A stretch of 64,000 nt of DNA, taken from the NCBI GenBank assembly GCA_016278505.1, contig JADQBQ010000004.1:25930-89929 (forward strand), written 5' to 3'. Numbering within the stretch: the first letter of the stretch is position 1; every line of letters starts with the position of its first letter. Both the position numbers and the translations under genes were made by a program. The notes under the pieces were generated by a model that was not told the origin of the DNA, made no database searches, and saw nothing but the letters and a program-made list of their open reading frames with translations. This document shows positions 14,975 to 52,682 of the stretch, in pieces. This DNA comes from Clostridiales bacterium. GTDB lineage: Bacteria > Bacillota > Desulfotomaculia > Desulfotomaculales > VENG01.

Positions 14975-15059
14975 GTCGGAGTGGCGGAATCGGCAGACGC
15001 GCACGTTTGAGGGGCGTGTGGGGTAACTCGTGGGGGTTCAAGTCCCCCCTCCGACACCA
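14975..15059 (+). tRNA. tRNA-Leu (GAG); island integration target
   Basis: GTCGGAG...CTCCGAC acceptor pairing, long variable arm, anticodon loop TTGAGGG, encoded CCA. Confidence 0.95.
15006..15059 (+). repeat. attL-like direct repeat (54 bp, 3' part of tRNA-Leu)
   Basis: tttgaggggcgtgtggggtaactcgtgggggttcaagtcccccctccgacacca, identical to 52629-52682. Confidence 0.92.
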
Positions 15060-15190: not shown

Positions 15191-16165
15191 ATGGGAGGTA
15201 TGAAAATGGCACGGCGTAAGGGACTTAAGACATCACACAGCAGTACACTACCTAAAAATGGAGTAAAAGAAATTGATTTTACGGAAGCCGTCGATATCTT
15301 TTTGACCGGCATGCTGCTTAAGGGTCTAGCTCCCCGCACAAGGGAGTGGCATAAAGAAAACCTGTCAGCCCTTAAAAACTTTTTGACCCAGGAAGGAAAG
15401 AATACCGCACCGGTGTCTATGACAGAAAGTATTTTAAAGCAAAATTTTATCCTGCCCATGATTAAGCACGGATTCAAAATTAATACCATCAATGGCAGAA
15501 TCAGAACCTGCCGCAGCTTTTACACGTACCTTCTTAAAGAGGGATATATCTTGTCCAATCCTGCCAAGCGCCTCACCAAGCTCAAGCAGGACAAGCCAAT
15601 TATTGAAACCTTTACCAAAAATCAGGTTAACAAACTTTTATCAGTCATTAATAGGCAAACATTTGTTGGCTTTCGGGATTACGTTATCATTTTACTCTTT
15701 TTGGAAACAGGCATTCGGGTATCCGAGGCCGCAAGAATAAAAGTTGAACATATTTTGTTTGAGGAGCAGATGATTAGGATACATGGCAAGGGGGCTAAGG
15801 GGCGTATTGTCCCCTTTCAAACTAAACTAAAGGGGCTGATGTATAAATACCTAAAAGAGCGCAGTGAAGTTGACCATCCCTACCTTTTTATTAACCGGGA
15901 TGAAAAACCACTTAAGAAAAGAACGATTCAAGATAGGTTCTCCATCTACGGTAAGAAGGCAAATCTTAAGGGGGTTCGCTGCTCCCCTCACACCATGCGC
16001 CACACCATGGCCAAGTTTTACATTATGGCCGGGGGAGATGTTTTTAGCCTGCAAAAAATTTTAGGCCACGCCTCTCTTGACATGGTTCGAAGGTATGTCG
16101 AGCTTTTTGGCAGCGAGATAAAAGAACAGCACAAAAAATATAGTCCCATTAAAGATTTTACATAA
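15191..16165 (+). CDS. tyrosine recombinase/integrase
   Basis: LETGIRVSEAARI, SPHTMRHTMAKFYI, LGHASLDMVRRYV (R..HxxR..Y); probable start ATG 15206 after GGGAGGT. Confidence 0.92.
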   Translation: MGGMKMARRKGLKTSHSSTLPKNGVKEIDFTEAVDIFLTGMLLKGLAPRTREWHKENLSALKNFLTQEGKNTAPVSMTESILKQNFILPMIKHGFKINTINGRIRTCRSFYTYLLKEGYILSNPAKRLTKLKQDKPIIETFTKNQVNKLLSVINRQTFVGFRDYVIILLFLETGIRVSEAARIKVEHILFEEQMIRIHGKGAKGRIVPFQTKLKGLMYKYLKERSEVDHPYLFINRDEKPLKKRTIQDRFSIYGKKANLKGVRCSPHTMRHTMAKFYIMAGGDVFSLQKILGHASLDMVRRYVELFGSEIKEQHKKYSPIKDFT

Positions 16166-22061: not shown

Positions 22062-22112
22062 GAGGGGCGTGTGGCTAAAACTGTGCGGGTTCAAGTCCCG
22101 CCTCCGACACCA
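22062..22112 (+). repeat. divergent tRNA-Leu 3'-end fragment (internal att-like site)
   Basis: gaggggcgtgtggctaaaactgtgcgggttcaagtcccgcctccgacacca aligns to the tRNA-Leu 3' half with substitutions. Confidence 0.85.
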
Positions 22113-22156
22113 CTTGAAATGTAGCGTGGGGCATTAGTTCCACGCTACATTTCAAG
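22113..22156. repeat. perfect 17-bp inverted repeat between two att-like fragments
   Basis: cttgaaatgtagcgtgg / ggcattagtt / ccacgctacatttcaag. Confidence 0.85.
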
Positions 22157-22226
22157 TCCCCCCTCCGACACCAGAAACCGACAAAAATGCAGGTTTGAGG
22201 CTGAATGTTGATAATAACACGTTTTT
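22151..22226 (+). repeat. second internal tRNA-Leu 3'-end fragment plus copy of the native downstream flank
   Basis: ttcaagtcccccctccgacaccagaaaccgacaaaaatgcaggtttgaggctgaatgttgataataacacgtt parallels 52660-52732 with a few mismatches. Confidence 0.85.
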
Positions 22227-22685: not shown

Positions 22686-23216
22686 TCAAGGATTATTATA
22701 ATATTCTTCTAATAAATCCGCAAACTCAAGGTTTAGATAGATAAAAGTAATTGGTTCGTTTTCTATGTTAGAAAATTCATCTTCTATCATTAGTTTAAAT
22801 TGAAATTTACTTCTATACCAATCAACTACTTCAGTTAAAGCTGCTCCAACAATATATTTCTCATTAAACATATATGCTAAATCAATTATATGACTAACTA
22901 CTAATTGACCAAAACCCAACCCTTGTTTTGATTCTAAAATTGCAATTCTAGCAATTTCCAAACAATCTTCTGTATGGATTTCATCATCTGTTTCAAAAGC
23001 AACCTCTTGATGTCTTAATGTAAAGTATCCAATAATTTCATCCTCAACGAATACTAAAGTAGTACTGGAATCTTTTTCTAAGTGACTTAAACGGGCCTCT
23101 GTTCTTAAAAATGATTCCATGCTACTGTTTTTACATCGAAAATTTTTATATGTGTCATAATTACAATCGATAATAGGGTAAAAACTTAAAGGCTGTTCTC
23201 CTATTTGGGTTTGCAT
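22686..23216 (-). CDS. GNAT family N-acetyltransferase
   Basis: TLVFVEDEIIGYFTLRHQEV, EIARIAILESKQGLGFGQLVVSHII. Confidence 0.8.
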   Translation of the reverse strand: MQTQIGEQPLSFYPIIDCNYDTYKNFRCKNSSMESFLRTEARLSHLEKDSSTTLVFVEDEIIGYFTLRHQEVAFETDDEIHTEDCLEIARIAILESKQGLGFGQLVVSHIIDLAYMFNEKYIVGAALTEVVDWYRSKFQFKLMIEDEFSNIENEPITFIYLNLEFADLLEEYYNNP

Positions 23217-23380
23217 ATATAAAAACCTTTACTTCTCCTACTAACTTTTCGGGTGGGTGGATCATTTTTAAAATTATGGCTTAACTTCTCTCTCAACTCT
23301 TCTATTTTCTTTTTTTCCTCCAAAAATCTTTCCGCATCCCTTCCTTTTACGGTTGGGAACTCTCTCAAACTGACTGCCAT
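23201..23380 (-). CDS. small basic protein upstream of and overlapping the GNAT gene
   Basis: From internal ATG at 23380: MAVSLREFPTVKGRDAERFLEEKKKIEELREKLSHNFKNDPPTRKVSRRSKGFYICKPK; track ORF runs to 23548. Confidence 0.55.
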   Translation of the reverse strand: MAVSLREFPTVKGRDAERFLEEKKKIEELREKLSHNFKNDPPTRKVSRRSKGFYICKPK

Positions 23381-23677
23381 TCTTCCACCCCCTGGTTTAT
23401 GATCTTTTTTAGAATCTTTTTCATTTGTATTCTTAGATTTGTTCTTGTCCAAATTATACACCTCCACTGGGCACTCATTAACAAATACTATGCCCACTAC
23501 CCAGGTGCATAACCACAATTTTACAGAAATCACATACAGTATTGGCAAATTTAGTTATTTCAAAGTGTAGCATGTAACATGTGTGACAGTCAAGACAATA
23601 TTTGCAAGCGTAAAGTTTGTTTAGGAATCAAAATAACCTCCCCTGTAAAAAGCGAAGGCTCTTTTAGTGGGGTACTA

Positions 23678-26600
23678 CTATACTGGAATCCATTGTTGTA
23701 ATTGAGTAAAATATAGCCCGGTTTCATGGACTTTTTCGCCAACAATCTCTTCCCAGTATTCTTTATACATCTGCACCTGAGGGGTGTAGTATTCCACCAG
23801 CTCTGCCAGCATGTCATTATCTTCCACAGTATCCGTCTTGTAGTCCACCAGCACCCAGCCGTCCTCTTCTAGGAAAACCAGGTCAATGGCGCCGGAAACT
23901 ATCGTTTCGGTAGTAAAACCGTATTCGCCGGTTTCCACCTTCACAGAAAGGGGCACTTCTACAAAGCGCTTTTCACTTTTTAGCATCCTCTTCCAGAGAC
24001 TTGACTTTAAAATTCCATTGACCAGGTTTAAAACCTCCGTTTTCTCCCCGGCATCCCTTTCTTCTTCGGCAAGGATGTTTTCCACGAAAAGCTCCAGGTT
24101 TGAGGGAACCTTTTCAGCGCAGGCTTCTAAAACCCTGTGCAGTACCCGGCCCCAGGACTGCCCGCGGCCCGTCCGTTGCCTGGCAGGGCCTCCACTCTTC
24201 CCTTTTACCAGTTCCGTAACAGCAGCAACATTATAACTGGGTTCATTCATGGGATTCCGCGGTCCCAGGAACCCACCCTTTGCTTCGTCCAAGTCCTCCA
24301 GGCTAATCTCGATACTTTCCTCACCGGTTGGGCTTGAATCGGTGCCTGAAACATCTTCTAACTCTGAAACACCCGCGAAATGACCATTGAAAGGATGCCA
24401 TGCGCTCAAGTCGGGTTTGCCCGGGTAGGTGCTAACAACCAGGAGGTTTTTGGCCCTTGTGGCTGCAACATAGATTAAGCGTGTTTCCTCGGCATCCAGG
24501 TATTGCTGTTCTATCTGGCAATACCGGTCCCAAGTCACGGGTTGCCCCAGGGTCTCTTTGTTAAATGACTTTTGCTTTTGGATAACGAAGTACCCCTAGG
24601 AGTGCTATCCCCCACTCTGTTAATGTGCATGGTTGGTAGCCACTTTACATTTTTGCCGGGGTTGGCCAGAAACACCACCGGCGCCTCCAAGCCCTTTGCC
24701 TTATGCAGGTTCATCAGTCTTACCGCGTTATCTTCCCAGGGCGTAATGTTGATTTCCTCTTCCACGCCGGATTCCATAAGGAGTGTGAGGTATTCCACCA
24801 GCGAGTAAAATGAAGTTATACCACTGCGTTCGGCGGCGGCAATAAACTCCTGGAATTGCAGCAGATGCCCGCTGCAGCTCTTGCCCAGTTCTCCTGTAAG
24901 CGCGTGAGAAATTATTCCCAGCTCACGCACAATATTCTGCATAGCAGCACTGGCCGGGAGAGTAATTGTCCATTCCCTGAAGTTTCGGAACATGGTGAAG
25001 GCCCACTCAAAAATCTCTTTGTCATCATCATCTAAGCCAGAGGGTACGTCGCTATATATGTTAAAACGGCCGCCTGCTTGTTTAAAGAGCCATAACTGAT
25101 TGTCACTGATACCGAAAAGGCTTCCCCTTAGGGCAGCAACCAGCAGCACCGGGTCATCAGGGTCAATAATGACCCTTAATATTTTAATCACTTCCGCCAT
25201 TTCGGCAGAATTGGAAAATCCGTCACCGCCGGCAATTCTAAAAGGTATACCCTGCTCTTCTAAAGCCCTTGCATACAGATCCATGTGTGCCTTGTAGCGC
25301 AGCAAAATCATGAAGTCTTCCGGACGGGGATTATCAGTTAGCCCTGCCTCCAATTCACTGTCGGTGCGGCACAAAGAAATACCGCCGTCAACGGCCCAGC
25401 GAATCCAGCGGGCAATACGTCCGGCATCTATAAATGCGATCTGATCCCTTCTATTAGACTTAATTTTAGGTATGGTAATGGTCTTCACACCATACGCTTT
25501 ACCGTTAATGTTTTGCCTCACGGTATCCATGCTGGTAAAGGCAGCCTGGTACGAGTCGGCCTTTTCGGGCAAAAGTTCCTTGAATACCGGGTTTACCCAG
25601 TCCCCAATGTCCTGCAGCGAGCGGAAGTTAGTGGTCAGGTAAAGGATTTTGCCGCCGCTGTTTTCAATAAGCCGCTTTACCTCGTTGTATGTATCTATGT
25701 CGGCGCGCCGGAAACGGTAAATGGCCTGCTTGGGGTCACCCACAACAAATAAAGAGCCGGGGTAAGGGGTCAGCTTACGCCAGTCCCTTTCGTCGATTTC
25801 CTGTCCGGTCAAATAAAACATAATCTGGGCTTGGATGGGGTCTGTATCCTGGAACTCATCCACCAAAAGGTGAGAATACCTTGCCCGAAAGTACCGTCGG
25901 ACTTCCGGGTTTTCCCTTAATAGAGCAGCAGCATGCATTAAAAGATCCTGGTAATTGAGCTTTGACTGCTCCATCCGGCGCTGCCCGTAAAGCTCAACCG
26001 CGGGCAGTACAAAGTCCACCAGCTGTTTATGCCTGTGCTCGTGCCACACCTCCAGGGTAGGAACAATGTAAGTTTCCCGGAAACCATCAAAAGCTTTCTT
26101 GATGGTTTTGGCATCCTCCGGTGACAACCACCGCTTTTGTGTAATACCCCCGGACTTGTTAAGCACCCCCAGCAACCGCAGCAGCATTAAGTCATTTTCA
26201 AGATCAAAGACACCACGCCACCTCAAGGCCCGCCTCAATATTTTCTGCAGGCCGTCCCAACCACCTCCGGGCACCGTCTTGGGCAGCACGTCTTTAGCGG
26301 AATCCAAAAGGTTAATTAATTCCTTGCGCACCGGCTCTAAATCAGGTTTAGGGGCATATTCCCGCACAATTTCTACATCGGGGTAAGTGGCTAATACCTT
26401 ATAGCAATCTTGTAAGTCTCCGGCTTCCACATCAATCTCTGCCAGCCCTTCAATTACCTCAGGTCTATCTGCCTGCATGCGCACCAGGTAATCGTCCCAG
26501 GCCCTTTCCCGCAGCAGCGCGTCTTCCAAATCTTCCAGCTCCACAAAATCAGGATCCAGTCCGGCCTCAATGGGCCGCTCCCGGAGAAGGGCAGCACAGA

Positions 26601-26928
26601 AAGAGTGTATGGTGCCTAAAAAACAGCGGTCCAGCCCGGTCAAAGCCGCACTTAACCGCTCTTTTTTATCCCGGTCCGTTTCAGAGGCCAGGGCTTTTTC
26701 CAGGGCCAGTTGGAATCTGCCCTTTAATTCTGCGGCCGCCTTCCTCGTAAATGTAACCGCTGCCAGCTTGTCTACTGTACATATGCCTTCCTTGATTAAT
26801 GCCACCATGCGTTCTATTAAGCTATATGTCTTTCCCGAGCCTGCCCCTGCTTCCACCAGTATGGAGGTTTGTAAATCCTGTACAATTGACCTGCGTGCAT
26901 CATGGTCTTTCAAGGTAGTATTAGTCAT
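23678..26928 (-). pseudogene. AddA-like UvrD helicase/PD-(D/E)XK nuclease, interrupted by an apparent -1 frameshift at about 24593-24596
   Basis: Track ORFs 24535-26928 (Walker A VEAGAGSGKTYSLIERM; LLVDEFQDTDPIQ; VVGDPKQAIYRFRRADI) and 23678-24538 (ETRLIYVAATRAKNLLVVS; WVLVDYKTD). Reading -1 at the GGGG run restores GYFVIQKQKSFNKETLGQPVTWDRY. Confidence 0.85.
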
Positions 26929-29900
26929 GCTCCTTCAACCTCCTCAAGGGGTTTAAACAAGGGCCGCTGCCGCTTAAAAGCAAATCCTTGGCCCTGGCCA
27001 ATGCGCTTTCCTGGTTACATACATCCGGGTAGTCGCAAATCCCGCACTTTTCGCCGTGGTCAGCGGCAATAAAACAGCCACTGGCTAATAGGTCAAAGAG
27101 GTGGTTAAGTACCTGAAAAACTGAACTGCGGTCTGACTGCTGCCGGGCTACCTTTTGTCCCTCGCCTTTTTCCGTGGGAAAATAATAACCGGACAATTCT
27201 ACCCGGGGTGTTTCCCCGGACATCAGCCCCTTTAGCAAATCTTCCACGGCAATGGCATACAGGGCATGCTGTACCTGTCGGCCCCCGCAAAGGTGTTTGT
27301 GGTCATCAAAACCATACGTGCTGCCGGTCTTGTAGTCCCAGACATGGTACACACCGTCCCGCACCCGGTCGATACGGTCCACCTTACCGCGCAATAGAAA
27401 GCCCGTATCATCGTCCAATTTGACCTCAACCGGATCGGCCAGGCCGCAGCCCGCCTCCTTTGCGGCTCCAGTGCCAAACCCGAAGGGAACCTCGAAAAAC
27501 TCCGGTGAACCATCCGTTTGTGACTCTTCTAAAGTTAGAAACATTTCGCAGCACGTATAAATCTCCGCTGCTTCCCGCTTAAAGACCACATCATTCGGGG
27601 GTGGAACTAATCGCTTGTAGTTTGTAATTAACTCGTCGGCCATTTCCATCATCATCTTTCTATGCCCGCTTAAAGAAGGTATTTCTTTGTCTGCCTTTAC
27701 TTTACACATAAACTTGTAGAAAAGATCGTGCAGTAAAGACCCACGGTCCAGCGCATCAAGCCAGCGCCCGGGGTCGTAAGTAATTTGTTCCGGGGGATAA
27801 ATCTTTAGTACATACCGCAAAAAATAAGCAAAGGGACAGCCGGCCAAATACTCTATTCTGCTGCAGGACATAATCATATCCTTATTTTCCCTCGGGTCAA
27901 GCTCAACATCGCCCGGGTCAATTACCCCGTCATATTCGGTAGGTTCAGGGTTTTGCCGGGCAGTTACGGCCTTTTGTCCCAGTTTTATGCCTTTATAGCA
28001 ATCTATAACTGCCTCCGGGCCGTTTCGTATACCCGGCCCGGTTAAGGCCTTGCCCAGCCACCATTCCACCTCATCCAGTGCGTTTTCCCCATCCCGGGAA
28101 CAATAGCCCGCTGGTTTTCCCAGGAAGTTCATCATCCGGCTATAATTAAGGGTGTTATCCCTCTCAAGCAGCCGAAATACTTGCAAAAGCAAGGATGAAG
28201 GGAAAGCCAACCTATTTTCCACCACGTCAAAGGAGGAAAAGCTTAAGGTTACCCTGCCCCTTCTGGAAGCTAGCGCCAGAGCCATTTTGTACTGGTTTTC
28301 CCCGGGTTTTTCTATCCCCAGCGGCAGTTGGGAATTTATTTTGGCCCGCTCCACGTCAAGCAATACGGGATCCTGCCTGCCGCTGCCCGGGAAGGAATTA
28401 GCATCCAAGCCTACCACAAATGTATATGGACGATCAGACCAGATTAAATGATTGTAGCTCGCCAGGTGAATATGCCCCGGTTTGGGGCCACAGCTGCCCA
28501 CCCCGTAACCAGCAAAAAGGTTTTCCACCCGGTCCAGTGCCTCATCCATACCCAATGCAAAGGAACTTATTTTACCCATGGCAATAAGGTCCTCTGTCAC
28601 GGCCTTTAATGCTGCAGCATCCATTTCTCCCCTGACTCTTGTCAATTCCGCCACAGCGGAAGCCAGGCTGCTGGTAAGTTCCCTAAAACTAACCTTTCCC
28701 TCAACATCCGGAACCGGTAGATATGACAGTATGCCATCCATTATCTCATGCAGCCGGAAGGCCTGCTCCCCCTGGCGCAGGAACCTTTCCTGCCTTCCGT
28801 CATTGTCTTCCTCCACCTTCACGGCTGCCTTTTCTTTAAAGCCATTTGCTAAAGTTTTTAACAAACTGTAACGGTCCCTTCCCCAGCCTATACCGGAAAT
28901 ACGTAATATGCGTGCTGCCTCTGACGGCGACAGGCTTAGTTCGCCGCCTTGCCTCAGCTGCACATCGCCGCTGAGCAGCAGGTCTCTAAAATCCCTGGTG
29001 GGAAAATCATTCCTTATCCATTCAATTAGACCTTTCAATACCTTACCTGCGGCAGTAAAGAAAACGGAGATGCCTTCTTCCATAGTTATACCCAGCCCGG
29101 CGACTCCGGCCAGGGTATATAATGCTGGTATGTAATCGCTCTTCGTGTAGGCTATGGTCACTTTGTCTAAGGGGATTCTCTCCTTTTGAATCCTCCGAAA
29201 AATCTCCCTTACTTCGTTGTTGATCCCGTATGCATGAAAGCAGTCCAATGAACCGTCTCCTACCGGCGGCGGAGACATGTTTACCTGGTACAGCCAGGGC
29301 AAGAGATCTACATCTGTATTCGGTGTAAATTCCTGTCCGGCATCAGGCTCTGGTTTGGCTACTCCGGGCCTGCTGAGGCCGTAAACAGGATCGGCCTCTA
29401 ACAGAAAGAGGTCTTCACCGGCCATTAATTCAATAAGTTGTTGTTCCAGGGGGTAAAGCTTAAGGAAAGACGGGAGCAGGTAAAGAATATCACCTTTAGG
29501 GCCTGTTCTTTGGTGAGAGAGTAATTCAATAGCCAGGGAAAAAAGCCCCGGCACATCAATAAGATTGTGTTCATCCAGGAAGTGCTCGTAGGCCAACAGT
29601 AGGACTGCCATATCCTGTCCCTTTTTTACACTTACGAAATTATCCTCCACTAAGCTGCTGCCTGTAAGCCCCGCGTTCCTTAGTTCCAATATTGAAGATG
29701 CTACTGCCCTTATAATCCCGGAATAATTGCCCTCCCGGGTAAAATATTGTAGGGTCCCTTGTTCTTCCAGTTTGTGAAAAACGTCTTCAATCACTGAAAA
29801 GCTTAGATTACCGGGTAGAAGTGTGAGATTGTTTTCGGCCATGTGTTCCCCTGCCACTATGTGAGCCAATCCAACTGCTGTCTCGGGTTGCAGGTTTACC

Positions 29901-30031
29901 CATCCACCGCTATCCCTTGCCAGGCACTCACAGAGCTCATGCCCTGCACGGTAGCCGGAGGCAATGAGCAACTTTTCGTTTAAGGGATACTTCCAGCATA
30001 TTTCTCCCAGAGAAGAAAGAAATCTATTCAC
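26921..30031 (-). CDS. AddB-like PD-(D/E)XK nuclease with inactivated helicase domain
   Basis: YHVWDYKTGSTYGFDDHK nuclease motif; YLAGCPFAYFLRYVLKIYPPE and CGICDYPDVCNQ Fe-S-type cysteines; no Walker A; overlaps the AddA-like start by 8 bp. Confidence 0.85.
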   Translation of the reverse strand: MNRFLSSLGEICWKYPLNEKLLIASGYRAGHELCECLARDSGGWVNLQPETAVGLAHIVAGEHMAENNLTLLPGNLSFSVIEDVFHKLEEQGTLQYFTREGNYSGIIRAVASSILELRNAGLTGSSLVEDNFVSVKKGQDMAVLLLAYEHFLDEHNLIDVPGLFSLAIELLSHQRTGPKGDILYLLPSFLKLYPLEQQLIELMAGEDLFLLEADPVYGLSRPGVAKPEPDAGQEFTPNTDVDLLPWLYQVNMSPPPVGDGSLDCFHAYGINNEVREIFRRIQKERIPLDKVTIAYTKSDYIPALYTLAGVAGLGITMEEGISVFFTAAGKVLKGLIEWIRNDFPTRDFRDLLLSGDVQLRQGGELSLSPSEAARILRISGIGWGRDRYSLLKTLANGFKEKAAVKVEEDNDGRQERFLRQGEQAFRLHEIMDGILSYLPVPDVEGKVSFRELTSSLASAVAELTRVRGEMDAAALKAVTEDLIAMGKISSFALGMDEALDRVENLFAGYGVGSCGPKPGHIHLASYNHLIWSDRPYTFVVGLDANSFPGSGRQDPVLLDVERAKINSQLPLGIEKPGENQYKMALALASRRGRVTLSFSSFDVVENRLAFPSSLLLQVFRLLERDNTLNYSRMMNFLGKPAGYCSRDGENALDEVEWWLGKALTGPGIRNGPEAVIDCYKGIKLGQKAVTARQNPEPTEYDGVIDPGDVELDPRENKDMIMSCSRIEYLAGCPFAYFLRYVLKIYPPEQITYDPGRWLDALDRGSLLHDLFYKFMCKVKADKEIPSLSGHRKMMMEMADELITNYKRLVPPPNDVVFKREAAEIYTCCEMFLTLEESQTDGSPEFFEVPFGFGTGAAKEAGCGLADPVEVKLDDDTGFLLRGKVDRIDRVRDGVYHVWDYKTGSTYGFDDHKHLCGGRQVQHALYAIAVEDLLKGLMSGETPRVELSGYYFPTEKGEGQKVARQQSDRSSVFQVLNHLFDLLASGCFIAADHGEKCGICDYPDVCNQESALARAKDLLLSGSGPCLNPLRRLKEHD

Positions 30032-30152
30032 GGTTTAACCTCCTTGTTACCTTAACCGGTATAGATAGACCGCTCCAAATTACATTACAATATGGAGGTA
30101 TGAATAAAAACAACACCGTGTTTTGTTAGGTGCTTATATCACGGTGCCGCGC

Positions 30153-31181
30153 TTAATCATTTTTACGATATAGAGTTAATATTCTTTCCGCCAGTCTACA
30201 CATATCCTCCCGCAGCCAACCAGGTTCCAGCACTTCTACCGAGTCTCCCCACTGCACTATCCAGGTTTTCATCTCGGTAATACCGCAGACGTTAAAGGAG
30301 ACAATTATTGACCCGTCTTCCAGTTCCGTCTCCAGTACTTGAGACGGATGATAAATGACGTTTTTAACCCTAAATGCCACATGGGGACTAAACTTAAGCT
30401 TGATCTGGCATTCTTCTCCGTCATTGATCACACCCCAGCTGTGTGCCATGTGTTCTTTAAGGTTAAAATCTTTCGGGTAATCAAATATCTCGTTGGTATA
30501 AGAGATTACATTCTCTAACTGGTCAATCCGGAACACCCTAATGGCCTGGCGTTTCAAGCAGTGCCCTACCAGGTACCAGTTTTGGCGTTTGCAAATCAGG
30601 CCATAGGGTTCCACCACCCGCTCGGTAACCCGGCCGCTGTGAGCAACGAAATACTTTATCTTCACCCGGTGGCAGTCTTTTAGCGCTGTGACCAGCCTGG
30701 TGAAGAAATCTCCTACCCGCTCCGGATCAGCCAGGGCTTCTTCCACCAGGTGGATCCTGTTCTGCAGTTTCTCTTCCGCAAGCTCTTTGGGATTGTAGTG
30801 ATATTTAAATAATGTCGATACCAGCGCATCTTTAAGGTCATTCAGGTGTCCGGCCAGGGCAGAACCCTGCTGCTGCAGCATACTTATAAAAATAGCGGTA
30901 GCTTTTTCCGGGCTCAAGCTGGGCAAATAGCCAACCTCAAAAGAATAGAAGGCGCACTTATTCCGGTCAACAACCTTTTCTCCCTTTCTTAACGGCAGCC
31001 TCATGTCATTTTGAATTGCGTCTAGGTCCCTTCGTATCTGCCGCTCGGTAACCTCGTATCTATCGGACAGCTCTTTCAAAGTTACTCCACCATAGGGCGT
31101 TCGCCGGTTAATATAGTCAACTATCATATTGAGCCGTAAACCACGGCTGGCGTCCTTTTGGGGCCTGTTAGACATGGGCAA
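30153..31181 (-). CDS. HTH-WYL domain transcriptional regulator
   Basis: N-terminal HTH (VTLKELSDRYEVTERQIRRDLDAIQ) and WYL region (VEPYGLICKRQNWYLVGHCLKRQAIRVFRIDQLENV). Confidence 0.92.
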   Translation of the reverse strand: MPMSNRPQKDASRGLRLNMIVDYINRRTPYGGVTLKELSDRYEVTERQIRRDLDAIQNDMRLPLRKGEKVVDRNKCAFYSFEVGYLPSLSPEKATAIFISMLQQQGSALAGHLNDLKDALVSTLFKYHYNPKELAEEKLQNRIHLVEEALADPERVGDFFTRLVTALKDCHRVKIKYFVAHSGRVTERVVEPYGLICKRQNWYLVGHCLKRQAIRVFRIDQLENVISYTNEIFDYPKDFNLKEHMAHSWGVINDGEECQIKLKFSPHVAFRVKNVIYHPSQVLETELEDGSIIVSFNVCGITEMKTWIVQWGDSVEVLEPGWLREDMCRLAERILTLYRKND

Positions 31182-31318
31182 AACCTCCGGCGCGCAATAA
31201 TCAATTATTTAACGGTTCGCCAGAAAGTGCCCAATGCCTGCAAAAAATTACTTAATTATACAGTACAAACATATGGCCCCAAAGCTTTAAGTTAAGTCCC
31301 TAGAACATAGTTACATGA

Positions 31319-32569
31319 CTATTTTCTTTTCCCCCTGCCCCTTTTTTGGCGGTAAGCACTATAAGCCATTTTTTTGCGAGATGACTTTGTATAATTTTCT
31401 GCCTGCATAAAGCAAATACTGTCATTCAACTCATCCAGTTCCTGCAGCATATCGGAATCTTCCATAAGGCCGGTGGAGGTACGCATGTCCAGCACCCTAT
31501 TTTTCAGCACCTGGTGGCCGGCCTCAAAATCCCCTTCGTCGGCCAGGCGTATGGCCTCTTCTTTGGCCTGCATACAACGGAACAACTCTAACTGTTTCAC
31601 AACTTCCATATTTTCTACCGGTCCCTCGTTATCAGCGTTAAAGTGTACTTCCAGGCCCGCGGACAAATTAACCAGGGCCAGGTTGTTCCTCACGTCGGCG
31701 TACTCAAGCTCTAATTCAATGTGGCTTTGAACCCCTTCCTGGCAGGGCGGTATATCTAACTCGAAAAGCAGGATTTTCGTTTCCCCGCTGTAAATGTCCG
31801 GCAGTGAAACCTTCACATCATTACCGGGATCAAAGGGATATCCCAAAACACCATTTACTCCAATACCCCGGCCGGGCTTGACCTTAATGGTCAAGTTCTG
31901 GGCGATTATGCTTAAAAGGCCTGACAGTTCTTCTTCGAATATACCGGGTATTTGGTCCGGTGATTCAATATAGTAAAAGTTACCCCCACCTACCTCCGAC
32001 ATGGCCTGCAGCAGGTCCTCTTCAAAATCTTCGCCCAGGCCGAAGGTAGATAGATTTATACCGGCACCGGCCATCTCCGCAGCCTTTTCCACCAGGGCGC
32101 GGTGGTCAGTTACCCCCACGTTGGCCATCCCGTCAGTCAGCAAAAGCACGCGGTTAATTTGATTTTCCCGGTAAGCCAATTTCACTTCACGCATCCCCAT
32201 GAGCATACCTCCGCTGAGGTTGGTAGTGCCCCCTGAATAGATACTCTCTACGGCCATTTTCAGGGCATCTTTGTTTTCCACCTTATGCGATGAGGCAATC
32301 ATATTCACCATGTCATCAAAGGCCACCACCGAACAATAATCCTGGGGCCCTAAATGGCCAATGGCAAAGGAGACCGCCGTTTTAGTATAATCCAGTTTTG
32401 TGCCGGACATACTCCCGCTGCGGTCAATGACAAAGGACAGGTTCTGGTCCGGCCGGTCATCTACAAGGTTCTCCGGGGCGGTGAGTTTTACCATCATATA
32501 AGCGGTTTGCCTGGTATCAGGCAGCAGTGCGGTTTTGTCCAAGGATAAGTCGATTTTGATTTGCTCCAT
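31319..32569 (-). CDS. von Willebrand factor type A domain protein
   Basis: MIDAS motif LSFVIDRSGSMSGTKLDYTK; LLLTDGMANVGVTD. Confidence 0.92.
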   Translation of the reverse strand: MEQIKIDLSLDKTALLPDTRQTAYMMVKLTAPENLVDDRPDQNLSFVIDRSGSMSGTKLDYTKTAVSFAIGHLGPQDYCSVVAFDDMVNMIASSHKVENKDALKMAVESIYSGGTTNLSGGMLMGMREVKLAYRENQINRVLLLTDGMANVGVTDHRALVEKAAEMAGAGINLSTFGLGEDFEEDLLQAMSEVGGGNFYYIESPDQIPGIFEEELSGLLSIIAQNLTIKVKPGRGIGVNGVLGYPFDPGNDVKVSLPDIYSGETKILLFELDIPPCQEGVQSHIELELEYADVRNNLALVNLSAGLEVHFNADNEGPVENMEVVKQLELFRCMQAKEEAIRLADEGDFEAGHQVLKNRVLDMRTSTGLMEDSDMLQELDELNDSICFMQAENYTKSSRKKMAYSAYRQKRGRGKRK

Positions 32570-32616
32570 AAGATAATCCCTCCCGTGTTATTGGTAATCA
32601 TATGATAACAACCGGG

Positions 32617-32636
32617 TGTGACCAATGTTTGTCACG
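32617..32636. promoter_or_regulatory. palindromic operator candidate upstream of VWA gene
   Basis: tgtgaccaatgtttgtcacg; similar to 37829-37848. Confidence 0.5.
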
Positions 32637-32688
32637 GTAGGGATTAATTTTTTCTAGCTGCATTGTTATTCAGCAACAGATTATTGTA

Positions 32689-34488
32689 TCAGCAAATTAA
32701 CTCTTTCAAAATCTTTTGTTCAAGGTACTCCTGAAAATGTGGATTGTCTCTACCGGGAGTTAACTGCACAATTGCAATCCGATACGGTTCCACTGGCATT
32801 ACCGTTGCAGATTCTTTGTCCACGGGAAAAAGAGCTAGTACCTGGAAAACAGGCCTAGAGTCTTGATCATCTATACTTGATAAGCCTATGCGGTAGTTTC
32901 TAAGCTGGCGCATGTTTACAGACCACTTGGGCCGCTGTTCCTCGATATCATGATTCCAAATGTTTTTACATGGGCGGTATTTGACCTCTAAAATAATTGA
33001 ACGATAATACTCACCGTTACGGTACAGGTCCAAGCGCATATCCGGCCTGTTATTCTCCGATTCGCTCCAAATAGGAATTTTTCGCTGTTTGGCCTCTTCC
33101 AGCCGGTAAGGAACAGTTTGATCATAAATCAAATCTAACCGCCAGGTGTCTTTATAAAACGTCACCTGGGTCCCCGGCTCGATGCTGGGTATAAACATGG
33201 AGTCGGAAAAATCCCACCTGTGGGAAAAGATCCACCCACTGTGAGGAGTAAAACCTAATTTCCTCACGGCTTCCATGGTTTTTACAAAACACCAATACTC
33301 ATATAGCAGATCTGTTCTTTTCCACTGGTAATCGGCTGCCGATTGCACTTGAACCTCGGAATGTTGAGTCAATTGCCGCCAAAAACGATATATAAACCAG
33401 TATCTGAAATCCTTTTGTAATCCAGGAGTTATGGGAATAAAACCAGAACAGTATTTAACCTCATTTAGAGGGAAGCTATTTAGGAGTTGCCAAAACTGGC
33501 CCTGCAAGCCTCCACAGCGGTTTAAGTCTTCCCTCAGCTTATTTATCTCTTGTTTTGTTCTCTCTGAAACAATTACATTACTGGAGTAAAATTGTTGTTC
33601 CAACTTAAATTCTTTTTTCTTTTGTTCCAATGTACTCTCAATGGCACTTTGAATTTCACCGAGTACCTGAATGATATCTCGTAATATTTTTTTTAGCCAC
33701 CGATTTTCCGGTAAATCAAATTGAATTTCATTATTAGGGGAAAGGACAAACTGCGGGTCTTTTGTGGTGTTACAATTTTTTCGCCTCCCCTGTTCCGAAT
33801 TGAGCCACCGTAAAGTCCGGTTATCCCAAACCTTTGCCCTGTGCACAGGTAATACACTGTACTTTTTAGATGCTTGCTGGTGAGGCTTTTGCAAAATATC
33901 CAAAATGGTAGCATATAAGCGGGGAAACTCCCGCTCAATGACATGGTATTGGTAAAATCGCTCTGGCAGAGACCGTACAACTTCGGATGTACCGATACCC
34001 TGGTTTTGCAAAACAATATCCATGGCTAGACCGCGGACGTAATTTTCTAGCTCAAAACGCATTTGTTCTAGCTGATCGTCCGTCATATTTTTTGCCCTTA
34101 CCCTTAAAATGGTAAAATACTCTTTATCACCCCACACTACTTTTACCCTGTATTGCCCAGGAATCCAAGGGTAAGTATTTTCCCCGGACTTGTATAAGGA
34201 AATGCTGCATGGACAGGGCAAGTACGCCCCGTCCAAGTCCCGTTGAACCAGGTCACTTTCAATCCCGTCCAACCCGTCAATATACAACTTGGTTTTAGAA
34301 GGGACTTCATATCCTGGCGCGGGACTGAATTCCAGATTCGAGTTGCTGAATTCCAGCAAATAAGTGTAATCAACGGCGGCTTCCTTTTCCTTTTGACAAA
34401 AATTGATTAGGGGTCTTGATGCGCTTCTTTCGACACCTCCCAGGTGCAAGATTACTTGAAAAGGCAACTTATTAGGAGGCATAACCAA
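32689..34488 (-). CDS. DUF2357/PD-(D/E)XK protein (McrC-like partner of McrB-type ATPase)
   Basis: Beta-rich N-terminus; C-terminal NRPDMRLDLYRNGEYYRSIILEVKYRPCKN nuclease-like motif; overlaps the McrB-like gene. Confidence 0.75.
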   Translation of the reverse strand: MVMPPNKLPFQVILHLGGVERSASRPLINFCQKEKEAAVDYTYLLEFSNSNLEFSPAPGYEVPSKTKLYIDGLDGIESDLVQRDLDGAYLPCPCSISLYKSGENTYPWIPGQYRVKVVWGDKEYFTILRVRAKNMTDDQLEQMRFELENYVRGLAMDIVLQNQGIGTSEVVRSLPERFYQYHVIEREFPRLYATILDILQKPHQQASKKYSVLPVHRAKVWDNRTLRWLNSEQGRRKNCNTTKDPQFVLSPNNEIQFDLPENRWLKKILRDIIQVLGEIQSAIESTLEQKKKEFKLEQQFYSSNVIVSERTKQEINKLREDLNRCGGLQGQFWQLLNSFPLNEVKYCSGFIPITPGLQKDFRYWFIYRFWRQLTQHSEVQVQSAADYQWKRTDLLYEYWCFVKTMEAVRKLGFTPHSGWIFSHRWDFSDSMFIPSIEPGTQVTFYKDTWRLDLIYDQTVPYRLEEAKQRKIPIWSESENNRPDMRLDLYRNGEYYRSIILEVKYRPCKNIWNHDIEEQRPKWSVNMRQLRNYRIGLSSIDDQDSRPVFQVLALFPVDKESATVMPVEPYRIAIVQLTPGRDNPHFQEYLEQKILKELIC

Positions 34489-36445
34489 ACCACCTTAATT
34501 CCTTAGCCTTCTGTTTTATTTCCTCACGGCTAAAAGTAAATTCACTTATACTTTCATATTTATCCATTAAGTTTAATAGTTCGCTGTTTTCCACGTCATC
34601 CGTTGTATCATTAAACCGGCCAAACAGTTTTACTAATTGTTCCTGCGGACCCCGCAGCATTGGAAACACTTTTTGCAGCAAAAGAAAATCAAAGGCCTTA
34701 GCCCTAGTCAGCAGCGGACTATGTTGGGTACGGGGGATATTAAGCAGGTACTTATCTATATGGCGCAACATGCGGTAACTAATTCCTTTTCCGGCATCCG
34801 CAGCATTAATGTGCTGGTGCATCTCGAACAGAAATTCTATCTCGGAGTTATTTAAAGCTAACCCTTTATCACCATGATTTACCCACTGCAAAAACTGCCC
34901 GGTAGTCACCTCATAATCCATTTCCTCGAAGGGTTCACTTGCAAGCCCTTCTTTCAATTTATCAAAAGGCAAAACTTTAAGGCGCAGTACATTGGCCCGG
35001 TTTAACACCTTATCGCTGAAAGTATAAGTAGACTCATCAATGTTTACGGTACCGACAAACAAGACATTGCTGCCTATCTTAATTTGAGGCGGGTACTGGC
35101 TGGAATTGTAAATGCGGTCTTTGAGCTCAGGGTTATACAACTGCAAACTTCTATTTTTCTCCGGCAGTTCCAAAATACTTAAGAACTGGCCAAAATAATG
35201 CTCTACCCGGGCAAGATTCATTTCATCTAAACAAAATAGATACAAGCGATCTGGATGTCCTTCAGCCTCCAGGAGTAAATTAACAATACCTGTATCCGCC
35301 GGGCGATAAATATTGTTGGCTGTATCCAAAAAGCCAATCAAATCCGTATCATCAACCCAGTTGGGACGTACCGGTAAAAATTTAAAGCGTCCGTTATTGC
35401 TGTTTTCATTTAGACCAAGTGCCTCAGAGTACATTCGGACCAGGTGCGACTTACCGGTGCCCGACATACCCGCCAGTATTACTAACCCACCCACCTTTAG
35501 GGCTGTGTGAAAATTTAAAAGGTCATCTTCGTCGTATAATAGGCCAGAGGCACGACACAGCCTGTCCAATCGATATATAAATTTTTCCTCGTCTTTATTT
35601 CCGGCAGGCTCATTGCTTTTCTCTGCTTCGGCAGAAACAGTCTCCGCAAAGTCTTCAGATTCCCCATGAGTTCCCTGGGTTTCGGCGCTCTCATTATTCT
35701 CTTCAACTTCTGTTGCCATGAAAGTTTTGGGGGAAATTACTTCTCCATCGCTGTCCAGCATGGCCTGAAAATCCTTGAGATAAGTAAAAGATTCAACAAA
35801 GGCTACTTCACCGAAAGTAATTATGCTTTCCTGTTCCAACAAGTCATAAGGCACGCGCATAATTTCATCGTTAAATTCGTATACCCATTTTTTATGACGT
35901 TCTACCCTGTTATAAAAACTCCCGTATAAGTAACCGTTAACATAAACGTATATTGGATCTACTTTAGGCATCTGTAATGGGTAATAGCGGAAAGGTCCTA
36001 AAGGCGATTGTTTAAGCAGTAATGCCTCATAATCTTCTTCGCTTTTTTGGTTTAGGTGCAACATGGGAATCAACCTAGATTCTGTATCTATTCTCACAGG
36101 TTTAGGTAAAACCATTACAGGTTCCGCGACATACAAAGTTTCACCTTTTTTGCGTTGTTCGGAGGGTCGAAACAGCACAATTTTATCCATTAAAAACGCT
36201 TCAAATTTTCTTGCCCTTATAGGCCAATCTTCATAATAGTCGTCCTCAAATTCGTAATCTCTAAATTTATTGGCATAACAAGTTATGGTTTTATCTAAAT
36301 GTAAAGATTCCGGGCCGTCAGAAATTATTTTCAGTGCAAATTGTATTTCCCCTATTTTATTTACAAAGGTTACTAAATCCCTATCCGGGGGTAAATCATC
36401 ACGTTCAGCTAAAATTCCTACCAGAATGCAGTCCAGGTCGTTCAT
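34472..36445 (-). CDS. McrB-like AAA+ ATPase/GTPase
   Basis: Walker A LAGMSGTGKSHLV; LFCLDEMNLARVEHYFGQFLSILE; VNIDESTYTFSDKVLNRANVLRL. Confidence 0.9.
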   Translation of the reverse strand: MNDLDCILVGILAERDDLPPDRDLVTFVNKIGEIQFALKIISDGPESLHLDKTITCYANKFRDYEFEDDYYEDWPIRARKFEAFLMDKIVLFRPSEQRKKGETLYVAEPVMVLPKPVRIDTESRLIPMLHLNQKSEEDYEALLLKQSPLGPFRYYPLQMPKVDPIYVYVNGYLYGSFYNRVERHKKWVYEFNDEIMRVPYDLLEQESIITFGEVAFVESFTYLKDFQAMLDSDGEVISPKTFMATEVEENNESAETQGTHGESEDFAETVSAEAEKSNEPAGNKDEEKFIYRLDRLCRASGLLYDEDDLLNFHTALKVGGLVILAGMSGTGKSHLVRMYSEALGLNENSNNGRFKFLPVRPNWVDDTDLIGFLDTANNIYRPADTGIVNLLLEAEGHPDRLYLFCLDEMNLARVEHYFGQFLSILELPEKNRSLQLYNPELKDRIYNSSQYPPQIKIGSNVLFVGTVNIDESTYTFSDKVLNRANVLRLKVLPFDKLKEGLASEPFEEMDYEVTTGQFLQWVNHGDKGLALNNSEIEFLFEMHQHINAADAGKGISYRMLRHIDKYLLNIPRTQHSPLLTRAKAFDFLLLQKVFPMLRGPQEQLVKLFGRFNDTTDDVENSELLNLMDKYESISEFTFSREEIKQKAKELRWFGYAS

Positions 36446-36470
36446 TATAATTAAGCCTCCTATTAACTAT

Positions 36471-37571
36471 CTATTTTGCTATATGATTCGCACTTTGAAG
36501 GATATTGTTTTCGACTTGCTTCATACTAGCTACTTCAATCAATCCGTTGAATTTCTTTAAAAATGAAATACGTTGTCTGTGATTGCAGCGGCTGGAAATA
36601 AGGAAAATCAAGTCAAATTCTTCAGAGCGACCACCATTTATATACTTTTCTTCAGCTGTAGATAGGTCAACAGACTTTAATTCCACCGGGACGCCGTTAA
36701 GGAATTTGCATTGCCTGCGTGGTTTATCGCCGATAATTATTGCACGCAGCACATCTCTTGCAGGGTTTTCCTCAGGGTACTTTGCCTGCCACAAATCTAA
36801 AACAGAGTTTTTGTCGGCTAGCTGCTGCTCATATTCTCTGTTTTGTTCAGCTAACTGATTAATTTGCATTTCTTTCTCGGCTAGCTCTTTTTCCAACTTT
36901 TCTTTTTGTTTGGTTACCCAAGCTAGGTTTTCTTTTAGCTTGGAGATTTCGGTTGCTTTTTCTTGGTTAAGTTTATTTATTTTACCTAACTCATCCTTGT
37001 ATTTTTCTTCCAACCTGCCTCTTTGGGATTTTTCTTTCTGTAATTTGGCATGGAAGGACTCATTTAGGTTTTGGAGTTTTGATTTTAGTTTACTGACTTC
37101 CTTTTGGAGTCTTATATTTTCTTCTTTAAGGCCATTGCTTAGTTCAACTATTCCCACCTCTTTATCATTATCCTCATCCTGCTGGTCAAGCCTCTCCATC
37201 AATTCTGTAATATAGCTTTTTACTTCTTCAGATTCAAAATCATTTTCTTCTTGTAATGCAACCAGTGCAAAAACATAATCAACGCCCCCATAATCTTTTA
37301 TTAAATTGCGTTCATTCGATTTAATAGTATCAAGGTCTTCATCGGCCATCGCTTCATATAAGCCTGGATTCAATCTAAAAATTACCGCTGCAAAAATACT
37401 TGCAGTTTCCGCTTTTGTAGCAAATTTTACAGTTTTATTTCTAATTAACTGCTTTGGTGCTTTTGATAAATCTTTTGAAAAACCTGGTAGGCTTAAATCT
37501 ATCTCTTTCGCCAGTTTTATTAGCCGGTTTTCATCCAAGTTCTCTACGTACCATTTGTAAAACTCCTTCAT
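36471..37571 (-). CDS. coiled-coil protein, first gene of the McrBC-like operon
   Basis: Long heptad-like region (LKEENIRLQKEVSKLKSKLQNL...EKLEKELAEKEMQINQLAEQNREYEQQLADK) with a distinct C-terminal domain. Confidence 0.75.
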   Translation of the reverse strand: MKEFYKWYVENLDENRLIKLAKEIDLSLPGFSKDLSKAPKQLIRNKTVKFATKAETASIFAAVIFRLNPGLYEAMADEDLDTIKSNERNLIKDYGGVDYVFALVALQEENDFESEEVKSYITELMERLDQQDEDNDKEVGIVELSNGLKEENIRLQKEVSKLKSKLQNLNESFHAKLQKEKSQRGRLEEKYKDELGKINKLNQEKATEISKLKENLAWVTKQKEKLEKELAEKEMQINQLAEQNREYEQQLADKNSVLDLWQAKYPEENPARDVLRAIIIGDKPRRQCKFLNGVPVELKSVDLSTAEEKYINGGRSEEFDLIFLISSRCNHRQRISFLKKFNGLIEVASMKQVENNILQSANHIAK

Positions 37572-39435: not shown

Positions 39436-40926
39436 TTGAGAGTGGAGCAAAATCAACCAAAACACTCATTTGTGCTTTTTACTCATAGAGTTGACCATAA
39501 AATGTTTAACCGTCTATTGGACTACAATAAGCAGGGAATTAAGGTGTACCTTTTCACTACCGATTCCCTGGAACATTATGAAACAGATGCTGTTTTGGAA
39601 GAAGCAAGGAAGTACGGATTTTTGTATTGGCATGAAATCCCAATACACGAAGCATTACCGAAGAATAAGGTTGAATTTGTAGACGGCCAAATTACAAACC
39701 CGCAACTGTATGACTACCTGTGCCAAAAATCATCTTTTAACCACGAACAATATTCCATAGAACATGAAAGGTCCGATAACCATTTGATGATATCGGCCGG
39801 TGCCGGCACCGGTAAAACTACCATCATGATTAACCGCCTGCTCTTTCTTAAGCATACCATGCCCGCCCTCTCGTTTGCCAACATAATCATGATTACATTT
39901 ACAAATGAAGCAGCGGTACAAATGCGCCAAAGACTCACATCACTACTAATGAACTATTACTACATTACAAAGAACAGGCGTTATTTGGAGTGGATTGAAG
40001 AAGCCCAAAGGTTGCAAATCTCGACGGTGCACTCCTTCGCAAAAAAATTCTTGCAAACGGCGGGGCAGGAGTTGGGTTTTCCTTCTTCATTCTCAGTTAG
40101 GTCATTCCGGTTTGATAAAAAGCACATTATTCAAAAGTGGATTAATGAGTTCGCTCGCCTTTATCCGGACCAATTCCAACACTTTGCCTTTATCCCACAG
40201 TACCATCTTGTTAACGCAGTAATCTTCGTCAATACAGTATTGGAAAATAGGTCCATAAGTGCAGATAAGATTGCCAACCAGTTAGATTTAGGTCACGATA
40301 AAAAACCCTTTTCAGTTCTTCTAAAGTACCTGTTGTATCACTTGCAACAAGATTTAAACCAGACTAAAAAGGAAGAAAACAAATGGGAAATGTCAGATCT
40401 TGTCCGCGAACTGGAGCGTTTAAAAGGTACAAGCAATCTGCAAGGGAAATTTGACACCCTTTATTTAATGGTGGATGAATTTCAAGATACAGATATTGTC
40501 CAGGTAAGATTTGTTTTATGGTTATTGGATAAACTAAATTTTAGGCTATTTGTGGTGGGGGATGAAAAACAGAGTATATACCGTTTCCGGGGTGCAGATT
40601 ACACGGCCTTCAGACAGCTGGAGGAAGGAATCAAAGCACGTGGTCAAAAGCTAACCCAAAAGTCCTTGGTCAAGAACTATCGTACAACCGCTAAACTACT
40701 AAACCAGTTAAACCCTTTATTCGAGCAGTGGGACAAAGATGTTAGCAAATTTCACTGTACCGGCAGCGACCGGCTGGAGCCTGTAATAATTGAAACGGAA
40801 TCCAGTAATGGATTGGATAAATTCATTACCTGGGCCAAGCTAAAGGAAATTCTCAATAAGTTGATTGACCAGGAAACGGCTATCCCGCGACCTCCTCATT
40901 ACCGAGATAAATCCTTTGTATTATAA
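39436..40926 (+). CDS. UvrD/Rep-like SF1 helicase, C-terminally truncated, with N-terminal extension
   Basis: ISAGAGTGKTTIMINRLL (Walker A), LMVDEFQDTDIVQ, VVGDEKQSIYRFRGADYTAF; ends before the usual C-terminal motifs. Confidence 0.85.
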   Translation: MRVEQNQPKHSFVLFTHRVDHKMFNRLLDYNKQGIKVYLFTTDSLEHYETDAVLEEARKYGFLYWHEIPIHEALPKNKVEFVDGQITNPQLYDYLCQKSSFNHEQYSIEHERSDNHLMISAGAGTGKTTIMINRLLFLKHTMPALSFANIIMITFTNEAAVQMRQRLTSLLMNYYYITKNRRYLEWIEEAQRLQISTVHSFAKKFLQTAGQELGFPSSFSVRSFRFDKKHIIQKWINEFARLYPDQFQHFAFIPQYHLVNAVIFVNTVLENRSISADKIANQLDLGHDKKPFSVLLKYLLYHLQQDLNQTKKEENKWEMSDLVRELERLKGTSNLQGKFDTLYLMVDEFQDTDIVQVRFVLWLLDKLNFRLFVVGDEKQSIYRFRGADYTAFRQLEEGIKARGQKLTQKSLVKNYRTTAKLLNQLNPLFEQWDKDVSKFHCTGSDRLEPVIIETESSNGLDKFITWAKLKEILNKLIDQETAIPRPPHYRDKSFVL

Positions 40927-44931: not shown

Positions 44932-44933
44932 TT

Positions 44934-52628: not shown

Positions 52629-52682
52629 TTTGAGGGGCGTGTGGGGTAACTCGTGGGGGTTCAAGTCCCCCCTCCGACACCA
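52629..52682 (+). repeat. attR-like direct repeat (54 bp, tRNA-Leu 3' end)
   Basis: Exact copy of 15006-15059. Confidence 0.92.

What the first reader, a model, noticed from the sequence alone, without database searches (positions are those of the whole stretch)
23678..37571. Composite defence-like block: McrBC-type operon, VWA, WYL regulator and AddAB-like pair in one orientation
Same-strand order is coiled-coil, McrB-like AAA+, DUF2357/PD-(D/E)XK, VWA, HTH-WYL, AddB-like, AddA-like. McrB-type ATPases with DUF2357 partners are type IV restriction relatives, and coiled-coil additions are known in the McrBC radiation (CoCoNuTs). Coupling to a VWA protein, a WYL regulator and an AddAB-like end-processing pair within an island is unusual and could be one two-stage system (recognition, then degradation).
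Basis: partly seen in the sequence, partly recalled or inferred. Interest (0 to 1): 0.75.

Follow-up and report, generated by a model that had tools for sequence, protein, structure and literature searches.

The report
AddAB-like module beside a McrBC-type triad
The block is two separable parts on a tRNA-anchored genomic island: a self-contained three-gene McrBC-type restriction system, and an apparently undescribed four-gene unit built around a second, divergent AddAB DNA-shredding enzyme that in other bacteria sits directly in front of interchangeable restriction systems; in this assembly its helicase gene carries a frameshift.

Summary
All seven gene identities, their order and strand are confirmed; the AddA-like gene is split by a 1-base frameshift absent from relatives. 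The seven genes are not one system: no other genome found has all seven. They fall into two units that also differ in base composition. (1) A coiled-coil/McrB/DUF2357-nuclease triad, found alone in 12 other Bacillota genomes and resembling CoCoNuT type I-B. (2) VWA-WYL-AddB-AddA, found in the same order in Paenibacillus. Its AddA lies on a long separate branch from canonical AddA, and the genome has a canonical addAB elsewhere. Unit-2 relatives stand beside two other kinds of McrBC-type pair, BREX-3, type I- and type III-like R-M, pPIWI-RE and Mza-like genes. In Paenibacillaceae near-identical AddAB heads carry different restriction cassettes, similarity ending within about 30 bp of the addA stop. 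Canonical addAB loci of the same genomes show none of this (0/20). Best reading: a defence-associated helicase-nuclease that degrades DNA ends made or exposed by partner systems; function untested. Other branches of the family look housekeeping in lineages without canonical AddAB. A terminator-like hairpin separates WYL from AddB here, so one seven-gene transcript is doubtful. No paper found describes the module.

The parts
36471..37571 (-). Coiled-coil protein, CnuA-like (366 aa): helical N-terminus, one long coiled-coil helix (140-264), alpha/beta C-terminus
   Evidence: fold search of the model found nothing significant
34472..36445 (-). McrB/CnuB-type AAA+ with NxD motif (VGTVNIDES)
   Evidence: NxD defined in PMC11090510
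32689..34488 (-). McrC/CnuC-type: DUF2357 + PD-(D/E)XK (PDDEXK_7)
   Evidence: motif PD...EVK visible
31319..32569 (-). VWA protein with intact MIDAS (DRSGS, T, D), ArnB/Sec23-24-like fold
30153..31181 (-). HTH-WYL-WCX transcriptional regulator
30090..30160 (-). Terminator-like hairpin between WYL and AddB (CACCGTG...CACGGTG, then TTGTTTTTATT)
   Evidence: sequence; dG -20.6, z -3.97
26921..30031 (-). AddB-like: inactive helicase-like region plus C-terminal PD-(D/E)XK nuclease; four-cysteine Fe-S set C732, C996, C999, C1005
24535..26928 (-). AddA-like, N-terminal part: UvrD-type helicase, broken off by the frameshift before motif VI
23678..24538 (-). AddA-like, C-terminal part in another frame: motif VI and PD-(D/E)XK nuclease
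15006..15059 (+). Left copy of a 54-bp repeat = 3' part of tRNA-Leu(gag), att-like
52629..52682 (+). Right copy of the 54-bp tRNA-Leu repeat, att-like
22085..22112 (+). Internal, imperfect copy of the tRNA-Leu 3' end
22151..22173 (+). Internal copy of the tRNA-Leu 3' end; the sequence after it resembles that after the right repeat
15191..16165 (+). Tyrosine integrase next to the tRNA gene (a second one at 16184-17158, minus strand)

Best explanation
The block joins two mobile defence units on a tRNA-Leu island. Unit A (coiled-coil, McrB-type AAA+, DUF2357-nuclease) is an autonomous McrBC-type system of the CoCoNuT type I-B kind. Unit B (VWA, WYL, AddB-like, AddA-like) is a dedicated, divergent AddAB-type helicase-nuclease with its own regulator (WYL) and an ArnB-like VWA partner. 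Proposed working: the WYL protein keeps the unit low or inducible; AddAB loads on double-stranded DNA ends; AddA unwinds; the two PD-(D/E)XK sites degrade both strands, so that DNA cut or exposed by a neighbouring restriction system is destroyed. Because the pair is so diverged from the host's own AddAB, it may also resist phage inhibitors aimed at the host enzyme. Shown here: gene content, intact catalytic residues in the family, conservation of unit B across distant Bacillota, its recurrent placement next to different restriction systems, and the absence of these neighbours from canonical addAB loci. Inferred: biochemical activity, functional coupling to neighbours, and the roles of VWA and WYL. 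In this genome AddA is frameshifted, so this copy may be inactive.
For: Second pair: canonical AddA elsewhere in the genome; canonical AddB in 29 of 48 genomes with the AddAB-like pair. Distinct clade: 53 AddA-like and 21 canonical AddA separate on one branch (length 2.66, support 100), yet AddB-like and canonical AddB align over 870 columns and match B. subtilis AddB in the PDB. Catalytic and Fe-S residues invariant in the alignments used. Unit B as a unit: in 15 of 18 Paenibacillaceae genomes the best WYL match of the genome (2-11 per genome) lies at the AddAB-like locus, and the VWA family does so in 10 (chance expectation 0.06 genomes for WYL; genomes not independent). L088, L101 and L107 have exactly VWA-WYL-AddB-AddA, WYL-AddB gaps 9-162 nt. 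GC3 groups the same four genes in the window. A WYL gene also precedes AddB-AddA on a Salinibacter plasmid. Defence linkage: BREX-3 (BrxF, BrxC, PglXI), BrxHI/II+PglZ+BrxA, HKD-SNF2+DUF4391+type III methylase, pPIWI-RE, MzaC-like; 15 of 29 AddAB-like loci in genomes with canonical AddB against 1 of 19 without and 0 of 20 canonical loci. Cassette exchange at the addA stop: L079 and L087 91% identical up to 16127 (stop 16118), then BREX-3 versus SNF2/methylase; L081 and L087 share the tail at 88% behind diverged heads.
Against: No functional or expression data. Co-location in defence islands can be hitch-hiking, and cassette exchange could reflect homologous recombination in a conserved hotspot. 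Several neighbour seeds came from these same loci, so the 15/29 count is biased upward; the VWA, WYL, DUF2357 and PglZ counts are not. AddAB-like is the only AddAB found in many other lineages (19 of 48 genomes without canonical AddB, some with what looks like RecJ upstream), so the family as a whole is not defence-specific. A weak alignment retains the residues at the B. subtilis Chi (F210) and latch (E129) positions, against a simple Chi-blind shredder. This copy is frameshifted and separated from WYL by a terminator-like hairpin.
Confidence: 0.5

Rival explanations
1. Independent cargo: the AddAB-like module is its own stand-alone anti-phage system (or a recombination hotspot) and shares islands with restriction systems without working with them.
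For: Each module occurs alone: the triad in 12 genomes, VWA-WYL next to BrxL/PglZ or type III R-M without AddAB, AddAB-like without recognised defence genes in 14 of 29 loci. Exchange exactly at the addA end could be homologous recombination in the conserved genes.
Against: Addition immediately behind addA with gaps of 28-181 nt in most cases with a known first cargo gene, and three different McrBC-type pairs next to the pair, suggest more than shared residence.
Confidence: 0.28
2. Repair or backup function: the pair is an alternative AddAB that repairs breaks (for example self-damage by restriction) or replaces the host AddAB when phage inhibitors block it.
For: It is the only AddAB found in Syntrophomonadaceae, Aminicenantes, Omnitrophota and Acidobacteria members, with ordinary-looking neighbours; residues at the Chi and latch positions are retained.
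Against: In genomes that already hold canonical AddAB it often sits with WYL, VWA and restriction genes, and split or truncated copies occur (L077, L084, L089, L072, the window), as expected of dispensable island genes.
Confidence: 0.15
3. One reading: all seven genes form one dedicated two-stage system, McrBC-type recognition followed by AddAB degradation.
For: One strand, contiguous, no unrelated gene between them; McrBC-AddAB linkage recurs in G010 and G037; a VWA remnant and a WYL gene lie on the same contig as a triad in G021.
Against: No other genome with all seven; triad autonomous in 12 genomes; different base composition of the two halves; terminator-like hairpin before AddB; AddA frameshift here.
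Confidence: 0.07

Closest known systems
AddAB helicase-nuclease (B. subtilis AddB, PDB 3U44/3U4Q; TIGR02785/TIGR02773)
   Same: Two subunits in the same order, UvrD helicase plus PD-(D/E)XK in AddA, inactive helicase-like region plus PD-(D/E)XK and four-Cys Fe-S set in AddB.
   Different: Far below the curated cut-offs (AddA 243 of 708 bits; AddB best 51 of 486), separate clade, smaller AddB, extra to the canonical pair, linked to WYL/VWA and restriction genes.
CoCoNuT type I-B (CnuA-CnuB-CnuC; PMC11090510)
   Same: Separate coiled-coil protein, McrB-type GTPase with NxD followed by E, DUF2357 partner, Bacillota.
   Different: REC and death-like domains of CnuA not confirmed; CSD/YTH and Ig-like domains not tested; that paper's text contains no AddA, UvrD or RecB.
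BREX type 3 and other R-M systems (PADLOC BrxF, BrxC, PglXI; HKD+Snf2; type III methylase)
   Same: Direct neighbours of the AddAB-like pair in Paenibacillaceae and Pelotomaculum relatives.
   Different: Not in the window; its genome has no PglZ match. The BREX survey PMC12839542 contains no AddA, AddB, UvrD or RecB in its text.
WYL regulators of defence systems (BrxR family; PMC9122601, PMC9122589)
   Same: HTH + WYL regulator next to defence genes.
   Different: Here coupled to a VWA protein and AddAB; PMC9122601 mentions neither.
ArnB / VWA2 of Sulfolobus (PDB 8S05, 5A8J)
   Same: Predicted fold over the full length (E 1e-26, TM 0.73).
   Different: 18% identity; bacterial; no ArnA or kinase partner identified.
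AddB-like nuclease with repeat arrays (PMC10910872)
   Same: AddB-like PD-(D/E)XK protein with inactive helicase domain outside canonical AddAB.
   Different: That one goes with CRISPR-like arrays; none found here.

Membership tests
Canonical AddAB | AddA: Walker A, DEFQD, motif VI and C-terminal D...DxK nuclease | tested here: met
   Invariant in ten related AddA-like proteins; the window copy holds all of them but in two frames
Canonical AddAB | AddB: PD-(D/E)XK and Fe-S cysteines | tested here: met
   H768, D885, D899, K901 and C732, C996, C999, C1005 invariant in nine proteins; aligned to 3u44_B
Canonical AddAB | Score above curated cut-off / inside the canonical clade | tested here: not met
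   243 of 708 bits AddA, 51 of 486 AddB; separate side of a 2.66 branch
CoCoNuT type I-B | NxD GTPase motif in the McrB homologue | tested here: met
   VGTVNIDES in the window, VNMDE in L031 and L032 (definition)
CoCoNuT type I-B | Separate coiled-coil CnuA in front of CnuB and CnuC | tested here: met
   Same three-gene order in the window, L146, L147 and in most of 12 further Bacillota loci (L231 lacks a called coiled-coil gene)
CoCoNuT type I-B | CnuA N-terminal PYD/CARD-like and C-terminal REC domain | tested here: inconclusive
   Model has N-terminal helices and a C-terminal alpha/beta domain but no significant structural match
CoCoNuT type I-B | CSD/YTH in CnuB and Ig-like N-terminus in CnuC | not tested
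CoCoNuT type I-B | Placement in the published GTPase tree | not tested
   Published alignment not held here
BREX | PglZ and BrxC in the locus | tested here: not met
   No PADLOC BREX core hit in the block; no PglZ match in the genome
ARMADA/DISARM-like McrBC association | YprA-family helicase with the McrBC genes | tested here: not met
   None among the block proteins; present next to the related triad in G024 and G021
Gabija | GajA next to GajB | tested here: not met
   GajB models match only through the UvrD domain; no GajA hit among the block proteins

The most novel reading that the evidence does not exclude
VWA-WYL-AddB-AddA is a portable degradation chassis: a constant helicase-nuclease head behind which whole restriction systems (BREX-3, type I, type III-like, Mza-like) are exchanged, with similarity ending at the addA stop codon, each then using the shared AddAB to finish off the DNA it has recognised.
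Probability: 0.3. Interest if true: 0.82.

Novelty: new variant of a known kind. Interest (0 to 1): 0.62.

Why it matters
Restriction systems are generally thought to rely on the host's RecBCD/AddAB to finish degradation (general knowledge), and BREX systems are described as appearing to contain no nuclease (PMC9122589 abstract). A dedicated, separately regulated AddAB relative placed directly in front of exchangeable restriction systems would mean that some islands bring their own finishing enzyme, perhaps one insensitive to phage inhibitors of the host enzyme. Close relatives that keep the same AddAB head but differ in the cassette behind it (Brevibacillus centrosporus and B. panacihumi) make this testable.

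Tried and rejected
Seven-gene order conserved across genomes: searched the order with AddB, DUF2357, VWA, WYL and PglZ, the phylum with McrB and GTDB contigs with an AddB profile; no second case. AddAB as the host's only one: rejected. Chi-blind shredder: not supported, key positions aligned and retained in a weak alignment. REC domain in the coiled-coil protein: fold search gave nothing. Phage origin of AddB: no phage or viral contig match. CRISPR-like arrays: none. RNA families: none. sigma-70-type promoters and the tool's terminator scan were at chance level. Defence counts from my own seeds are biased towards the loci that supplied them, so whole-genome counts with window VWA and WYL and with Pfam families were used as the main statistics.

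Full report
OBSERVATION. The seven gene families are present on the minus strand as described. The AddA-like gene is broken in this assembly: ORFs 24535-26928 and 23678-24538 lie in different frames, while relatives have one ORF of about 1080 aa covering both. Gaps inside CC-McrB-DUF2357 and AddB-AddA are short or overlapping; the three other gaps are 119-137 nt, and the one before AddB holds a terminator-like hairpin.

SETTING. The block lies on an integrative island: a 54-bp copy of the tRNA-Leu(gag) 3' end at 15006-15059 recurs at 52629-52682 (37.6 kb apart), next to tyrosine integrases and serine recombinases. Further copies of the tRNA end at 22085-22112 and 22151-22173 suggest two or more elements in tandem, the block lying in the right-hand one. 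GC3 separates CC/McrB/DUF2357 (0.34-0.45) from VWA/WYL/AddB/AddA (0.53-0.58).

TRIAD. The McrB has the shortened NxD motif followed by E, typical of CoCoNuTs and relatives (PMC11090510). The three-gene order recurs in G024 and G021, there behind a YprA-type helicase, and in 12 other genomes of 399 searched, where no VWA, WYL or AddAB was detected beside it (a separate coiled-coil gene was called in most, not in L231). It is therefore autonomous and best compared with CoCoNuT type I-B; the REC and death-fold domains of CnuA could not be confirmed.

ADDAB-LIKE PAIR. The genome has a canonical AddA elsewhere. AddB-like aligns with canonical AddB over 870 columns at 17% identity and with B. subtilis AddB in the PDB; nuclease and Fe-S residues are invariant. 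The AddA-like clade is separated from canonical AddA by a long branch. The pair occurs in 12 of 113 genomes of the order and in 68 loci of a GTDB scan. Of 48 such genomes, 29 also have a canonical AddB-type match; the 19 without are mostly Syntrophomonadaceae-like, Aminicenantes, Omnitrophota and Acidobacteria, where the pair looks like the only AddAB and mostly has ordinary neighbours.

FOUR-GENE MODULE. With the window VWA and WYL proteins as unbiased probes, the genome-best WYL lies at the AddAB-like locus in 15 of 18 Paenibacillaceae genomes, and the VWA family in 10. L088, L101 and L107 show exactly the window's order VWA-WYL-AddB-AddA. None of 20 canonical addAB loci from the same genomes has either. 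A WYL gene also precedes AddB-AddA on a Salinibacter plasmid. The VWA model has the ArnB/Sec23-24-like fold. In the window's own order VWA-WYL pairs also occur without AddAB, and VWA or WYL genes stand next to BREX or type III R-M genes; a second WYL-VWA pair exists in the own genome at G000:C33.

CARGO. Behind or before the AddAB-like pair stand McrB+DUF2357 of two other kinds (L031, L032), BrxHI/II+PglZ+BrxA (L027/L043), BREX-3 genes (L079, L084, L103), HKD-SNF2+DUF4391+type III methylase (L080-L082, L087), pPIWI-RE genes and MzaC-like genes. In the order, DUF2357 lies within 5 kb of AddB in 3 of the 4 genomes having both (expected 0.011), and PglZ in 2 of 6 (expected 0.04). L079 and L087 are 91% identical to 9 nt past the addA stop and then differ entirely; L081 and L087 share the tail at 88% behind diverged heads. 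This is exchange of restriction cassettes at the end of addA.

MECHANISM. Inference from family knowledge: AddAB enzymes load on DNA ends and degrade both strands. A dedicated pair next to restriction systems would destroy the ends these make or expose. Unshown: activity, coupling, and the roles of VWA and WYL. The window copy may be dead.

LITERATURE. Searches of the held library found no description of this association; absence from this library is not proof of novelty.

VERDICT. Observation confirmed; interpretation partly supported; what is left is a probably undescribed VWA-WYL-AddAB-like module with interchangeable restriction partners.

Noticed in passing
15006-15059, 22085-22112, 22151-22173, 52629-52682: Four copies of the tRNA-Leu(gag) 3' end; the sequence after 22173 resembles that after 52682, suggesting tandem integrations at one tRNA gene.
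   Followed up: partly
L079 versus L087, position about 16127 (also L081, L103, L085, L098): Restriction cassettes are exchanged just behind the addA stop codon between close relatives.
   Followed up: yes
43114-50138: Three dynamin-like GTPase genes and a coiled-coil gene in a row, next to a second WYL regulator (50506-51492) and a TerD-domain protein (52802-54037).
   Followed up: partly
39436-40926: UvrD-type helicase ORF of 496 aa that matches only the N-terminal helicase domain, possibly truncated.
   Followed up: no
22686-23548: GNAT acetyltransferase with a small gene overlapping it upstream, possibly a toxin-antitoxin pair, directly downstream of AddA.
   Followed up: no
L156 (G000:C33:13001-33000): Second WYL-VWA pair in the own genome, about 50% identical, beside a 1334-aa helicase, a PLD-like protein and a 755-aa protein without Pfam match.
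   Followed up: partly
L072, L157, L160, L077, L081: An OB-HD (YhaM-like) gene recurs next to or near the WYL gene in both Desulfotomaculales-like and Paenibacillaceae loci.
   Followed up: partly
L049, L051, L053, L061: In Syntrophomonadaceae-like genomes without canonical AddB, a gene that looks like RecJ directly precedes AddB-AddA (by eye, no family search).
   Followed up: no
L033/L056: In Desulfotomaculum copahuensis the AddAB-like pair lies near homologues of the genes next to the window's tRNA-Leu, so the chromosomal spot may be shared.
   Followed up: no
L146, L147, L160: CC-McrB-DUF2357 triad directly behind a 796-aa protein and a 1611-aa YprA-type helicase.
   Followed up: partly
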